Assembly (NCBI GenBank): GCA_022833215.1
Contig: JAIPUZ010000012.1
Span: 1 to 40,145, forward strand
Reading direction: 5' to 3'
Source of the DNA: Mesorhizobium sp.
GTDB taxonomy: Bacteria; Pseudomonadota; Alphaproteobacteria; Rhizobiales; Rhizobiaceae
DNA length: 40,145 bases
Part shown: positions 8,395-39,094 of the stretch, piece after piece
Numbering within the stretch: position 1 is the first letter of the stretch
How the letters are laid out: every line of letters starts with the position of its first letter
Program-made: the position numbers and the translations under genes
Notes under the pieces: generated by a model
Database searches by the model: none
What the model saw: only the letters and a program-made list of their open reading frames with translations
What the model was told of the DNA's origin: nothing

Positions 8395-8420
8395 TGTGAA
8401 TAGCGCGCGTGCCTTGTGTG
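8395..8420 (-). promoter_or_regulatory. Flagellar bipartite promoter element upstream of motA
   Basis: Read on the minus strand it is CACACAAG-N7-CGCTATTCA, ending about 32 bases before the motA ATG. It matches the spacing (exactly 7 between halves) of the elements at 8464, 12493, 21046, 28595 and 35765. It shares a divergent intergenic region with the plus-strand copy for the DUF1217 operon. Confidence 0.55.
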
Positions 8421-8460
8421 AGGCTTGAATCCGGCGACCGGCGCGCGACGTCCGGTTCAG

Positions 8461-8489
8461 TTTCGCGCAAGCAAGCCGGCCTATTCTTT
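8461..8489 (+). promoter_or_regulatory. Flagellar bipartite promoter element upstream of the DUF1217-flgF-fliI operon
   Basis: The sequence is CGCGCAAG-N7-GCCTATTCT (core 8464-8487), 38 bases from the second half to the GTG start. It is one of the best copies of the element repeated before most operons in the window. It does not match sigma-54 (GG-N10-GC) or enterobacterial sigma-28 (TAAA-N15-GCCGATAA) spacing. Confidence 0.65.
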
Positions 8490-8516
8490 CCCTTCAGCTT
8501 CGGCCGGAGGCATCGC

Positions 8517-9635
8517 GTGTTGAACACTTTCGTCAGTTACAAGCTGATTGCGCGGGACATCCCGAAGGCGATCGACCGCATCGAGCGCCAGCCGATGGTC
8601 GACCGCGAAACCAAATATTACCTCGAGAATATCGGCAAGGTCGGCTCGATCGACGTGTTCGTGAAGAACGACCGCCTGTTCAAATACGCCATGAAGGCAT
8701 TCGGCCTTCAGGACATGAGCTACGCCAGGGCCTTCATGGTCAAGGCGCTCAAGGAAGGCGTGACGGACCCGGACAGCTTCGCCAACAAGCTGACCGACAA
8801 GCGCTATGCGGAATTCGTCTCCACCTTCGACTTCGCCAGGCATGGCGACGCGGCCACGATCTACAACAAGGCCCAGCAGGCGACGACCGGCAACTACGCC
8901 ATCCAGGCCGCCATCGACGAAATTGATCCGGCGACGGTCAAGGCCGAGACCGACTACTATATGAGCAGGATCGCGGGCGTGAAGTCGATCGACGACCTGT
9001 TCGGCGATGCCCGTCTCTATAACTACGCCATGCGCGCCTATGCGCTCGATCCCGAAACGGAAAGCCCCGAGACGATGCGCAAGGTGCTGGAGGGCGGCGC
9101 GTCCGACCCGAAAAGCCTCGCCAATACGCTGGAAGACAAGCGCTATGCAGCCTTCGCCAGCGCCTTCGACTTCGCCGGGCTTGGCGAAAAGGCCACGACC
9201 TGGACGCCCACGCATGAAAACGTGGTCGACAAGTATCTGCGGCAGACGCTGGAGGAAGATGCCGGCAACAGCAACGAAGGCGTGCGGCTGGCGCTCTACT
9301 TCCAGCGCAAGGCCGCCGACATCACCGACTGGTATCAGGTGCTGGCCGACAAGGCGCTGGCCACTGTCGTGCGGACGGCTTTCGGCCTGCCGGACTCCTT
9401 CGCCAGGGCCGACATCGACAAGCAGGTGAAACTCTTCGAATCGAAGATGAACATCGAGGACTTTGCCAACCCGGCAAAGCTGGAGAAGTTCATCACCCGC
9501 TTCACCAGCCTCTACGAGATCAGCAATCCGACCTCACCGGCCCTGAATGCAGCCAGCATCCTGTTCTCACAGCCGACGACGGCAGGCGTCTCCACGAACC
9601 TGCTGATGGCAATGCAGCAACTCAAGTCGAAATAA
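8517..9635 (+). CDS. DUF1217-type flagellar-cluster protein with three internal repeats
   Basis: The 372-residue protein is of the DUF1217 type found in rhizobial flagellar clusters, and its molecular role is unknown to me. Three copies of a unit of about 110 residues are visible. The first contains RETKYYLENIGKV and FKYAMKAFGL, the second AETDYYMSRIAGV and YNYAMRAYAL, and a more diverged third contains LALYFQRKAADI and VVRTAFGLPDS. Between units, SFANKLTDKRYAEF matches SLANTLEDKRYAAF. There is no signal peptide or membrane span. GTG 8517 is chosen because GGAGG ends 6 bases upstream and the N-terminus then resembles relatives. It leads an operon with flgF and fliI. Confidence 0.85.
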   Translation: MLNTFVSYKLIARDIPKAIDRIERQPMVDRETKYYLENIGKVGSIDVFVKNDRLFKYAMKAFGLQDMSYARAFMVKALKEGVTDPDSFANKLTDKRYAEFVSTFDFARHGDAATIYNKAQQATTGNYAIQAAIDEIDPATVKAETDYYMSRIAGVKSIDDLFGDARLYNYAMRAYALDPETESPETMRKVLEGGASDPKSLANTLEDKRYAAFASAFDFAGLGEKATTWTPTHENVVDKYLRQTLEEDAGNSNEGVRLALYFQRKAADITDWYQVLADKALATVVRTAFGLPDSFARADIDKQVKLFESKMNIEDFANPAKLEKFITRFTSLYEISNPTSPALNAASILFSQPTTAGVSTNLLMAMQQLKSK

Positions 9636-9649
9636 GGGGCGACCCGGCC

Positions 9650-37913: not shown

Positions 37914-38665
37914 CAGCGCTGGCCGAAGGCGCCATTCTGGCGGCATTCCTCGCCTTCTGCCGCATCGGCGCCTGCCTGATGATCATGCCGGGCCTGTCCA
38001 GCGTGCGCGTGCCGGTTCAGGTGCGCCTGTTCACCGCCGTCGCCGTCACCATGGCCCTGCTCACCTTCCTGTGGGACCGCATCTTTCCCTTCGTCGACGG
38101 GACGCGCCCGGCCATCATGGTTCCGATGATCGTTTCGGAACTGCTCGTCGGCGGGCTGATCGGCGCGCTGACGCGGCTCTACATGGAGGCGATGCGCTTC
38201 ATCGGCACGGCGATCGCGATGCTCATGGGTTTCAACAGTATGGGCGGCACCGCGATCGAGGAAGCCGATCCGCAAGGTCCGCTCGCCGCTCTCATCTCGC
38301 TGTCGGCGCTGCTCCTGCTGTTCGTATTCGATTTCCATCTGGAAGTGATCCGCGCGCTCGTCGCCTCCTATTCGATCGCACCGGTCAACGTCTTCTTCAA
38401 CCCGCAATCGGCCCTGATCGACGTGGCCGATACGGTTTCGGAAAGCTTTTTCCTCGTGCTGCGGCTCGGCAGCCCCTTCATCGCCTATGCCATACTGGTC
38501 AACCTGACCATCGGCTTCGTCAACAAGCTGACGCCGCAGATACCGATCTACTTCATCTCCCTGCCCTTCGTCATCGCCGGCGGGCTGATCCTGTTCTACT
38601 TCGCCTTCTCGACCATGCTTTCCCTGTTCGCCGACGGCTTCCTCGGCGTGACGCTGGCAAGGTAA
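37910..38665 (+). CDS. fliR: Flagellar export gate protein FliR
   Basis: The 251-residue protein has about six hydrophobic segments and begins at GTG 37910, overlapping the flhA stop (GTGA). Typical parts are FLAFCRIGACLMIMPGLSS, RVPVQVRLFTAVAVTMAL, and NKLTPQIPIYFISLPFVIAG. FliR completes the FliP5-FliQ4-FliR1 core channel. Confidence 0.96.
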   Translation: MTALAEGAILAAFLAFCRIGACLMIMPGLSSVRVPVQVRLFTAVAVTMALLTFLWDRIFPFVDGTRPAIMVPMIVSELLVGGLIGALTRLYMEAMRFIGTAIAMLMGFNSMGGTAIEEADPQGPLAALISLSALLLLFVFDFHLEVIRALVASYSIAPVNVFFNPQSALIDVADTVSESFFLVLRLGSPFIAYAILVNLTIGFVNKLTPQIPIYFISLPFVIAGGLILFYFAFSTMLSLFADGFLGVTLAR

Positions 38666-38668
38666 TCC

Positions 38669-39052
38669 ATGACCCCGCGCACCAGACGCCTGAAGAAACT
38701 CGTCAGGGTACAGGACCAGATCAGGGCGCTGCACGAAATGCATCACGCCATGCATCTGGCCAACGCCGCCTCGGCAAGACGCGAAGCCGAGGAACTGGCC
38801 GCGGGCTTCGACGCGCCGGGTTCGCTGTCGGCGCTCTTTCCGGATGTCTATCATCGCCGGATCGCCGACGCCTTCGCGCGCTGCGATGCCGAGCTTGAAA
38901 AAGCCCGCGCCGAGTCGTCCCGGCTGGCGACCGCCACGGCGCGCGCCAACATGGTGCAGCGCGATTACAGAGATGCCCGCCAGACGGACGAGCGCCGGTC
39001 CACGGAACGCATGCTGCTCGACCTCATCGAGCAGAAGCACAGGCGCAGGTAA
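38669..39052 (+). CDS. FliJ-like coiled-coil protein (candidate)
   Basis: The 127-residue, very basic and helical protein has no membrane span: RTRRLKKLVRVQDQIRALHE at the start, an Ala/Arg/Glu-rich centre and SSRLATATARANMVQRDYRD near the end. FliJ is a short antiparallel coiled coil that binds FlhA and FliI. No annotated fliJ is seen elsewhere in the window, and this gene is linked to flhA-fliR with a 3-base gap. The break near GFDAPGSLSALFPDVYH is not typical, so the assignment is tentative. Confidence 0.6.
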   Translation: MTPRTRRLKKLVRVQDQIRALHEMHHAMHLANAASARREAEELAAGFDAPGSLSALFPDVYHRRIADAFARCDAELEKARAESSRLATATARANMVQRDYRDARQTDERRSTERMLLDLIEQKHRRR

Positions 39053-39070
39053 TGAACGCCACGTCAGCCT

Positions 39071-39094
39071 GCGGCAAGCTTTCGGCGGCATGAT
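39071..39094 (+). promoter_or_regulatory. Weak copy of the flagellar bipartite element upstream of flgJ
   Basis: GCGGCAAG-N7-CGGCATGAT (39071-39094) keeps the CAAG half and the spacing, and lies 41 bases from the second half to the flgJ TTG. The second half matches poorly. Confidence 0.3.

What the first reader, a model, noticed from the sequence alone, without database searches (positions are those of the whole stretch)
8395..39094. A bipartite element, CGCGCAAG-N7-GCCTATCCT, precedes most flagellar operons
Copies lie at 8395-8420 (minus, motA), 8464 (DUF1217 operon), 12493 (flgB), 21046 (fliF), 28595 (flgE) and 35765 (flhA), with a weak one at 39071 (flgJ). The gap between halves is always 7 bases, and the second half begins 32-46 bases before the start codon. 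Every plus-strand operon with structural genes except the flagellins has one; visNR, ftcR and the MFS gene do not. The pattern does not fit sigma-54, sigma-28 or normal sigma-70 spacing. It could be a FtcR/Rem box joined to a -10 region, or the signature of a special promoter class.
Basis: partly seen in the sequence, partly recalled or inferred. Interest (0 to 1): 0.78.

Follow-up and report, generated by a model that had tools for sequence, protein, structure and literature searches.

The report
FtcR-type promoter box on flagellar operons
A short repeated DNA sign, placed ten bases ahead of a standard promoter element, marks the flagellum-building gene groups of this bacterium and looks like the docking site of the flagellar switch protein FtcR, shared by many related bacteria.

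Summary
The element is real at all seven places named. It is better drawn as a 34-base module: an 11-bp tandem repeat (nnnnMAB-YYTC-GCRCAAG), 10 bp, then a sigma70-like -10 (TANNNT), with no recognisable -35. A model trained only on fliF, flgE and flhA sites of other species gave six hits at E<=10 in the 4.55-Mb genome: flgE, fliF, flhA, DUF1217, motA and flgB, the last three held-out classes. The weak flgJ site is clear in 12 of 12 relatives. Upstream of fliF the module scores >=5 in 36 of 50 FtcR-type flagellar systems against 0 of 30 other-type controls, and separates the two systems in 12 of 12 tested dual-flagellum genomes. It occurs where VisN and VisR were not detected. Best explanation: the operator of FtcR (Rem/LafR), a PhoB/OmpR-type regulator, placed as in PhoB class II promoters. 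Binding is inferred, not shown. The Brucella FtcR motif in print, TGTGGGCA, is absent from all 50 FtcR-type fliF upstream regions checked. A new member of a known kind; the operator is undescribed in the papers I could read, but the two founding papers were not held.

The parts
8397..8430 (-). FtcR-type promoter module before motA (minus-strand flagellar genes): ATTCAAG CCTC ACACAAG N10 TATTCA
   Evidence: held-out hit of model R1 in own genome, E 0.29; with the DUF1217 module in 16 of 17 same-genus motA loci
8454..8487 (+). module before DUF1217 (then flgF-like, fliI): GGTTCAG TTTC GCGCAAG N10 TATTCT
   Evidence: held-out hit, E 0.014; exact pattern hit; 16 of 17 same-genus motA loci
12483..12516 (+). 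module before flgB, strict tandem repeat GCGCAAG GCCC GCGCAAG N10 TACCAT
   Evidence: held-out hit, E 0.32; 16 of 16 same-genus flgB loci
21036..21069 (+). module before fliF: ATTTCAT TTTC GCACAAG N10 TAGCCT
   Evidence: 73 of 73 relatives; diverged families
28585..28618 (+). module before flgE: TCACCAG CTTC GCGCAAG N10 TATCCT
   Evidence: 79 of 79 relatives when 600 bp are searched
35755..35788 (+). module before flhA: GCCCCAC CTTC GCGCAAG N10 TAGCTT
   Evidence: 23 of 23 relatives
39061..39094 (+). degenerate module before flgJ: ACGTCAG CCTG CGGCAAG N10 CATGAT
   Evidence: weak here (score 5.4; no R1 hit), but 12 of 12 same-genus flgJ loci have nnnnnAG-NYTG-CSRCAAG-N10-SATNRT, mostly GCAAG-CCTG-CCACAAG (scores 6.7-16.4)
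27886..28554 (+). ftcR, OmpR/PhoB-type response regulator, proposed to bind the modules
   Evidence: PF00486 E 1.9e-16; PF00072 E 1.4e-6, 28.9 bits against a cut-off of 30.2; close match (E<1e-45) in 62 of 199 genomes of the order, including all 56 with FtcR-type FliF
1903..2787 (+). visN-like LuxR-family gene (visR-like gene follows, about 2790-3536): the rival regulators
   Evidence: PF00196; long matches at E<1e-20 to both in the same 8 of 199 genomes

Best explanation
By gene order, each group of flagellar structural genes here except the flagellins starts at an activator-dependent sigma70 promoter that has no -35 element. In its place stands an operator of two 7-bp half sites 11 bp apart (nnnnMAB-YYTC-GCRCAAG), whose downstream half ends 10 bp before the -10 (TANNNT). 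FtcR, the OmpR/PhoB-type regulator encoded in the same cluster (Rem in Sinorhizobium, LafR in Bradyrhizobium), binds the repeat head to tail as PhoB binds a pho box, holds sigma70 at the missing -35 and so switches on the class II flagellar operons together. Shown: the module, its conservation, its fixed spacing, its genome-wide specificity and its co-occurrence with FtcR. Inferred: FtcR binding, sigma70 contact, the transcription start and the operon limits.
For: Blind recovery of six promoters, three of them held-out classes, with no other hit at E<=10. Footprint across species: fliF 73 of 73, flhA 23 of 23, flgE 75 of 79 within 160 bp and 79 of 79 within 600 bp; motA plus DUF1217 16 of 17 loci; flgB 16 of 16 and flgJ 12 of 12. 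Diverged genera and families: fliF 36 of 50 against 0 of 30 controls at score >=5, and FtcR-type only in 12 of 12 dual-flagellum genomes. Other genes there at score >=10: flgE 19 of 21 hits that begin at residue 1, flgB 16 of 18, flhA 5 of 5 and flgJ 5 of 5 (both in one family), motA 4 of 4. Order-wide, R1 hits at E<=1e-3 occur in 20 genomes, all among the 62 FtcR+ of 199 (14 of 20 outside the window's genus); all 34 such hits lie within 23 kb of ftcR or FtcR-type fliF. Half-site self-similarity peaks at 11 bp. FtcR's recognition-helix region keeps V189, E191, H193, L197, R198 and L201 in 37 of 37 sequences. Where extra DNA lies between module and flgE, the 34-bp module is intact. Literature: pho-box layout (passages of PMC4415409; PMC4971064); Rem activates class II genes (passages of PMC8429497).
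Against: No binding or transcription-start data. 14 of 50 FtcR-type fliF upstream regions score below 5, in families f25, f22, f17 and f2. R1 hits between E 1e-3 and 0.01 are noisy: 9 of 24 lie near ftcR or FtcR-type fliF, 15 elsewhere, 3 of these in FtcR- genomes. The upstream half site is degenerate at fliF and flhA; motA's -10 lacks the final T; flgB's spacer is GCCC. G007's second motA copy has no DUF1217 module (L139), and G019's flgB has none (L105). The Brucella FtcR ChIP-seq motif in print, TGTGGGCA, is different (passages of PMC9456535). In a blind 6-mer comparison CGCAAG ranked third of 600, behind AGCAGC and AGGCGC. Helix conservation (mean 0.80) is only slightly above that of the whole DNA-binding domain (0.75). 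Related genomes are not independent.
Confidence: 0.85

Rival explanations
1. The repeat is bound by another regulator that travels with FtcR-type flagellar clusters (another OmpR-family protein or an unknown cluster gene), while FtcR acts indirectly.
For: Co-occurrence cannot separate FtcR from any other gene of the same system.
Against: FtcR has the DNA-binding domain expected for an 11-bp direct repeat and is encoded in the cluster here; homologues in S. meliloti, B. diazoefficiens and Brucella are reported activators of such genes (passages).
Confidence: 0.07
2. The whole unit is the promoter of an alternative sigma factor, CGCRCAAG being its -35 and TANNNT its -10.
For: Fixed spacing; no recognisable TTGAC.
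Against: A 10-bp spacer is too short for known -35/-10 sigma70-family promoters (recalled). The upstream box is a tandem repeat reaching about -40. The -10 keeps sigma70's strongest bases (that these are A2 and T6 is recalled): A second in 92% and T sixth in 81% of 37 representatives, though the sites were chosen with a matrix that includes these columns.
Confidence: 0.05
3. The box is the site of VisNR, the LuxR-type master regulator.
For: VisNR is needed for flagellar genes in S. meliloti and R. leguminosarum (passages of PMC8429497); visN lies in this window.
Against: Long matches at E<1e-20 to VisN and to VisR occur in the same 8 of 199 genomes, all in family f1. The box scores >=5 at fliF in 34 of the 48 FtcR-type systems whose genomes have no such match. 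More diverged VisN or VisR could be missed: even within f1 identity falls to 32-36%. LuxR-type sites are normally inverted, not direct, repeats (recalled).
Confidence: 0.02
4. Chance similarity or recent duplication of one upstream region.
For: Short sequences in a 64% G+C window.
Against: Genome-wide specificity; in the printed upstream regions the flanks differ between operons while the module persists across families.
Confidence: 0.01

Closest known systems
Pho box / PhoB class II promoter (OmpR/PhoB family)
   Same: Two 11-bp direct repeats (7 conserved + 4), regulator of the same domain family, operator placed beside the sigma70 -10 in place of the -35 (passages of PMC4415409 and PMC4971064).
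   Different: Sequence GCRCAAG rather than CTGTCAT; a regulator whose likely phospho-acceptor position is not kept (D56 in 22 of 37 sequences); flagellar targets.
Rem / FtcR / LafR regulon of Rhizobiales
   Same: Same regulator family; reported targets overlap (fliF and flgE in Brucella; fliM and orf38 plus assembly and motor genes in S. meliloti; that orf38 is the DUF1217 gene is recalled).
   Different: No operator of this form in the passages I read. The Brucella motif TGTGGGCA does not match and is absent from 50 of 50 FtcR-type fliF upstream regions. Rotter 2006 and Leonard 2007 were not held.
CtrA-dependent flagellar promoters (Caulobacter, Rhodobacter fla2)
   Same: Activator with the same type of DNA-binding domain (recalled) on flagellar promoters in alphaproteobacteria (abstract of PMC6180460 in the listing).
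   Different: CtrA sites are TAA-N7-TTAAC (passages of PMC3616915); the module columns show no such pattern.

Membership tests
OmpR/PhoB-type class II activator promoter (pho-box layout) | Operator of two direct half sites 11 bp apart | tested here: met
   Mean identity with the 7-mer 11 bp upstream is 3.76 of 7, against 0.92-2.27 at offsets 7-10 and 12-19 (37 representatives, chosen with a matrix that includes the upstream half). With fliF sites chosen without it: 3.42, next best 2.75 at offset 18 (12 family groups).
OmpR/PhoB-type class II activator promoter (pho-box layout) | Operator adjoins the -10 at a fixed distance and takes the place of the -35 | tested here: met
   By inspection: 10-bp spacing kept across species; where a -35 would lie, 17 bp from the -10 (columns 6-11), the consensus is ABYYTC, not TTGACA.
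OmpR/PhoB-type class II activator promoter (pho-box layout) | Regulator has an OmpR/PhoB winged-helix domain | tested here: met
   FtcR 27886-28554: PF00486 E 1.9e-16; among the 36 PDB matches the best are response regulators such as RegX3 and PrrA.
OmpR/PhoB-type class II activator promoter (pho-box layout) | Regulator binds the repeat and recruits sigma70 | not testable with these tools
   Needs footprinting and in-vitro transcription.
FtcR/Rem/LafR regulon | Sites occur with FtcR and not without it | tested here: met
   R1 best E<=1e-3: 20 of 62 FtcR+ against 0 of 137 FtcR- genomes (14 of 56 against 0 of 137 without the window's genus). At <=0.01: 34 of 62 against 3 of 137, but many of these weaker hits lie away from flagellar loci. 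fliF: 36 of 50 against 0 of 30.
FtcR/Rem/LafR regulon | FtcR binds these promoters | not testable with these tools
   Needs purified protein or ChIP.
FtcR/Rem/LafR regulon | Carries the published FtcR motif TGTGGGCA | tested here: not met
   0 of 50 FtcR-type fliF upstream regions and nowhere in the window, either strand.
Sigma-54 promoter | GG-N10-GC at -24/-12 | tested here: not met
   By inspection: conserved columns are CA, YTC, GCRCAAG and TA...T; no GG...GC pair is kept.
CtrA box | TAA-N7-TTAAC | tested here: not met
   By inspection: no such pattern in the module columns.

The most novel reading that the evidence does not exclude
The class II flagellar regulon of Rhizobiales is defined by one rigid, -35-less promoter code, [nnnnMAB-YYTC-GCRCAAG]-N10-[TANNNT], read by FtcR/Rem/LafR largely without phosphorylation. 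It is inherited with the FtcR-type flagellar system across many families (fliF score >=5 in 14 families, with the family labels), also where VisNR is not found, and the operator published for Brucella FtcR is not its flagellar operator.
Probability: 0.6. Interest if true: 0.65.

Novelty: new member of a known kind. Interest (0 to 1): 0.52.

Why it matters
It gives a named but poorly mapped master regulator (FtcR/Rem/LafR) a predicted operator and a base-pair promoter layout. The regulon can then be read from sequence in rhizobia and their relatives, and the two flagellar systems of dual-flagellum species can be told apart by their promoters. It questions the one FtcR motif I found in print and explains why these promoters do not match sigma54 or standard sigma70 sites.

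Tried and rejected
Loose consensus: CGCGCAAG-N7-GCCTA with 2 mismatches gives 93 + 72 hits in the genome against 193 + 207 for the reversed control; I used the 34-bp module instead.

Fixed distance to the start codon: rejected. In four loci (L024, L028, L043, L054) the 160-bp search missed the flgE box because extra DNA lies between module and gene; the box is intact with its first base 163-232 bp before the ATG.

VisNR as binder: rejected on distribution. Published TGTGGGCA motif: absent. A -35 hexamer inside the module: none seen. Blind 6-mer comparison of fliF upstream regions: AGCAGC and AGGCGC ranked above CGCAAG; AGCAGC is loosely placed (median 191 bp, quartiles 150-236, within the 250 bp looked at), CGCAAG at median 44 bp; AGGCGC was not followed up.

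Papers: Rotter 2006 (Rem) and Leonard 2007 (FtcR) are not held, so I cannot say they lack such a box. Searches for an operator in print; I read passages of ten papers, none as a whole text. The S. meliloti transcription-start paper (PMC3616915) has no 'flagell' in its main text and three de novo motifs, none like this. FtcR's phosphorylation state could not be settled by alignment. No structure prediction was run.

Rows set aside: of 100 distinct fliF, flgE and flhA sites outside L009, 42 were used for the model. In one search, flgE hits under 30% identity were dropped uncounted, and 15 hits not beginning at residue 1 are taken as paralogues or fragments (no box in 15 of 15). One search kept 80 of 119 rows (score >=10), then one per gene and family, with G154 kept apart from its family. 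The score threshold of 5 was set after seeing that controls reach at most 0.3.
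Full report
WHAT WAS CHECKED. Aligned on CAAG, they give a 34-base module: an upstream 7-mer, four bases, GCRCAAG, ten bases, and a hexamer TANNNT. DUF1217: GGTTCAG TTTC GCGCAAG N10 TATTCT. flgB: GCGCAAG GCCC GCGCAAG N10 TACCAT. fliF: ATTTCAT TTTC GCACAAG N10 TAGCCT. flgE: TCACCAG CTTC GCGCAAG N10 TATCCT. flhA: GCCCCAC CTTC GCGCAAG N10 TAGCTT. motA (minus strand): ATTCAAG CCTC ACACAAG N10 TATTCA. flgJ: ACGTCAG CCTG CGGCAAG N10 CATGAT.

CHANCE. The literal pattern with up to 3 mismatches has 3 matches in the window against 0.20 expected. 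For an independent test I took fliF, flgE and flhA sites from other species only (14 of each), built a sequence-only model R1 and scanned the window's genome. It returned six hits at E<=10: flgE and fliF (9e-5), flhA (1.7e-4), DUF1217 (0.014), motA (0.29) and flgB (0.32). The last three belong to classes the model had never seen; flgJ was not returned. The tool scored 150 of 1929 first-look candidates, so weak sites elsewhere may be missed. The exact pattern TCRCRCAAG-N10-TANNNT has four matches in 4.55 Mb, all flagellar; the reversed control has one.

FOOTPRINT IN NEAR RELATIVES. A scan with FtcR gave 80 loci (best 80 of 552), mostly Mesorhizobium and Aminobacter, with Aquamicrobium defluvii encoding an identical FtcR. 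A matrix from six window sites finds the module upstream of fliF in 73 of 73, flhA in 23 of 23 and flgE in 75 of 79. The other four flgE cases have it intact, its first base 163-232 bp before the ATG, with extra DNA between; with 600 bp searched the count is 79 of 79. The -10 to ATG gap varies from 33 to 198 bp while the 34-base unit keeps its layout. In same-genus genomes motA and DUF1217 have it in 16 of 17 motA loci (the exception is a second motA copy of G007) and flgB in 16 of 16. flgJ has it in 12 of 12, mostly as a clear repeat (GCAAG-CCTG-CCACAAG), so the weak window copy is probably a real member.

FtcR OR SOMETHING ELSE. In 199 genomes of the order, FtcR matches split cleanly: 62 genomes have one at E<1e-45; the best in the rest is 5e-27. 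FliF splits too: 56 genomes have the FtcR-type FliF (E<1e-100), and all 56 are among the 62. R1 hits at E<=1e-3 fall in 20 genomes, all FtcR+ (6 of them of the window's genus, from whose relatives R1 was trained; 14 outside); all 34 such hits lie within 23 kb of ftcR or FtcR-type fliF. Weaker hits are noisy: of 24 between 1e-3 and 0.01, 9 lie near these genes and 15 elsewhere, 3 of those in FtcR- genomes. I fetched upstream DNA of all 50 FtcR-type fliF genes outside the window's genus and of 30 other-type fliF genes: 12 from genomes with both systems, 1 from an FtcR+ genome without the FtcR-type fliF, 17 from FtcR- genomes. Best scores are >=5 in 36 of 50 against 0 of 30 (control maximum 0.3; threshold set after seeing the controls; Mann-Whitney p 9e-10). 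A stricter regular expression, also written after seeing the sites, gives 20 of 50 against 0 of 30, and at most 1 of 50 in 200 shuffles. Thirteen genomes have both flagellar systems; the second fliF was fetched for twelve, and in 12 of 12 only the FtcR-type fliF has the box (>=10.5 against <=0.3). The 14 low FtcR-type cases lie in four families (f25, f22, f17, f2) and are not explained. Other genes on these stretches carry it at score >=10: flgE 19 of 21 hits beginning at residue 1, flgB 16 of 18, flhA 5 of 5, flgJ 5 of 5, motA 4 of 4. The one DUF1217 hit was partial and had none; fifteen partial or paralogous flgE hits had none.

VisN and VisR were searched in the same 199 genomes. Long matches at E<1e-20 to both occur in the same 8 genomes, all in family f1; elsewhere matches are weaker and mostly confined to the C-terminal part. 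The box is at fliF (score >=5) in 34 of the 48 FtcR-type systems without such a match. Diverged VisNR could be missed, but the published picture agrees: Azorhizobium and Bradyrhizobium lack visNR and have rem homologues (passages of PMC8429497).

REPEAT AND -10. In 37 gene-by-family representatives the core matches the 7-mer 11 bp upstream at 3.76 of 7 positions, against 0.92-2.27 at other offsets from 7 to 19. That set was chosen with a matrix that includes the upstream half, so I repeated it with fliF sites chosen without it: 3.42 at 11 bp, next best 2.75 at 18 (12 family groups). Column 30 is A in 92% and column 34 is T in 81% (the matrix includes these columns), the A2 and T6 of a sigma70 -10. 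Where a -35 would lie, the consensus is ABYYTC.

MECHANISM. Pho boxes are two 11-nucleotide direct repeats (passages of PMC4415409), and in E. coli the box usually stands near the -10 in place of the -35 (passages of PMC4971064). FtcR has the same type of DNA-binding domain (PF00486). Its recognition-helix region (placed by analogy) has six residues invariant in 37 sequences, as expected if the operator is shared, though its mean conservation (0.80) is only slightly above the domain's (0.75). I infer that FtcR binds head to tail from about -40 to -23 and holds sigma70. The Asp at receiver position 56, the likely phospho-acceptor, is kept in 22 of 37. With the report that LafR needs no phosphorylation, this suggests control by FtcR amount.

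CONFLICT WITH PRINT. A ChIP-seq study of Brucella FtcR gives TGTGGGCA (passages of PMC9456535). It is in none of 50 FtcR-type fliF upstream regions and nowhere in this window. I did not examine named Brucella genomes. The original Rem and FtcR papers were not held, so priority for the operator remains open.

NOVELTY. The layout is known (PhoB class II) and the regulator is known; the operator sequence and its span over the order appear new within what I could read. Interest is moderate: well supported, testable and useful, not a new kind of system.

Noticed in passing
window about 27790-27850; ftcR upstream of L009-L088: A separate block upstream of ftcR, roughly CAAGAAATGACGGTTNTTCAGGATTC, is conserved across the 80 loci (less so in this window's species); it lacks the FtcR box and could be the site through which VisNR or another factor controls ftcR.
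   Followed up: partly
window 18677, 19947-19971, 27840: GTTAACC / TTAACCAT motifs precede both flagellin genes and ftcR; they resemble the unassigned S. meliloti promoter Motif 2 (TTTGTTAACCAT) in PMC3616915 and may mark another promoter class.
   Followed up: no
window 27886-28554: FtcR's receiver domain scores just under Pfam's cut-off and its likely phospho-acceptor Asp56 is kept in 22 of 37 sequences, with Gly55 in 37 of 37; it looks like an atypical receiver.
   Followed up: partly
L012, L024, L028, L043, L054 upstream of flgE: Extra DNA (about AAAAGTGCGCAGCGGTTTTGGGAGAACGACATGCAT and a GCGCGTC palindrome) lies between promoter and flgE in some Mesorhizobium, giving -10 to ATG gaps of 125-198 bp; part of it is doubled in L043. 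Whether it is a genomic repeat was not tested.
   Followed up: partly
window 39127; L257-L268: flgJ appears to start with TTG here and in all 12 same-genus loci, a conserved non-ATG start.
   Followed up: no
window 8397-8487: The motA and DUF1217 modules are back to back on opposite strands with 23 bp between them.
   Followed up: no
FtcR-type fliF upstream regions (L176-L225): AGCAGC occurs within 250 bp upstream of 25 of 50 FtcR-type fliF genes and 0 of 30 controls, loosely placed (median 191 bp); cause not determined.
   Followed up: no
G182, G200, G093, G060: Some genomes of the order have two FtcR-like genes; in G093 an R1 hit lies 12 kb from the second one.
   Followed up: no
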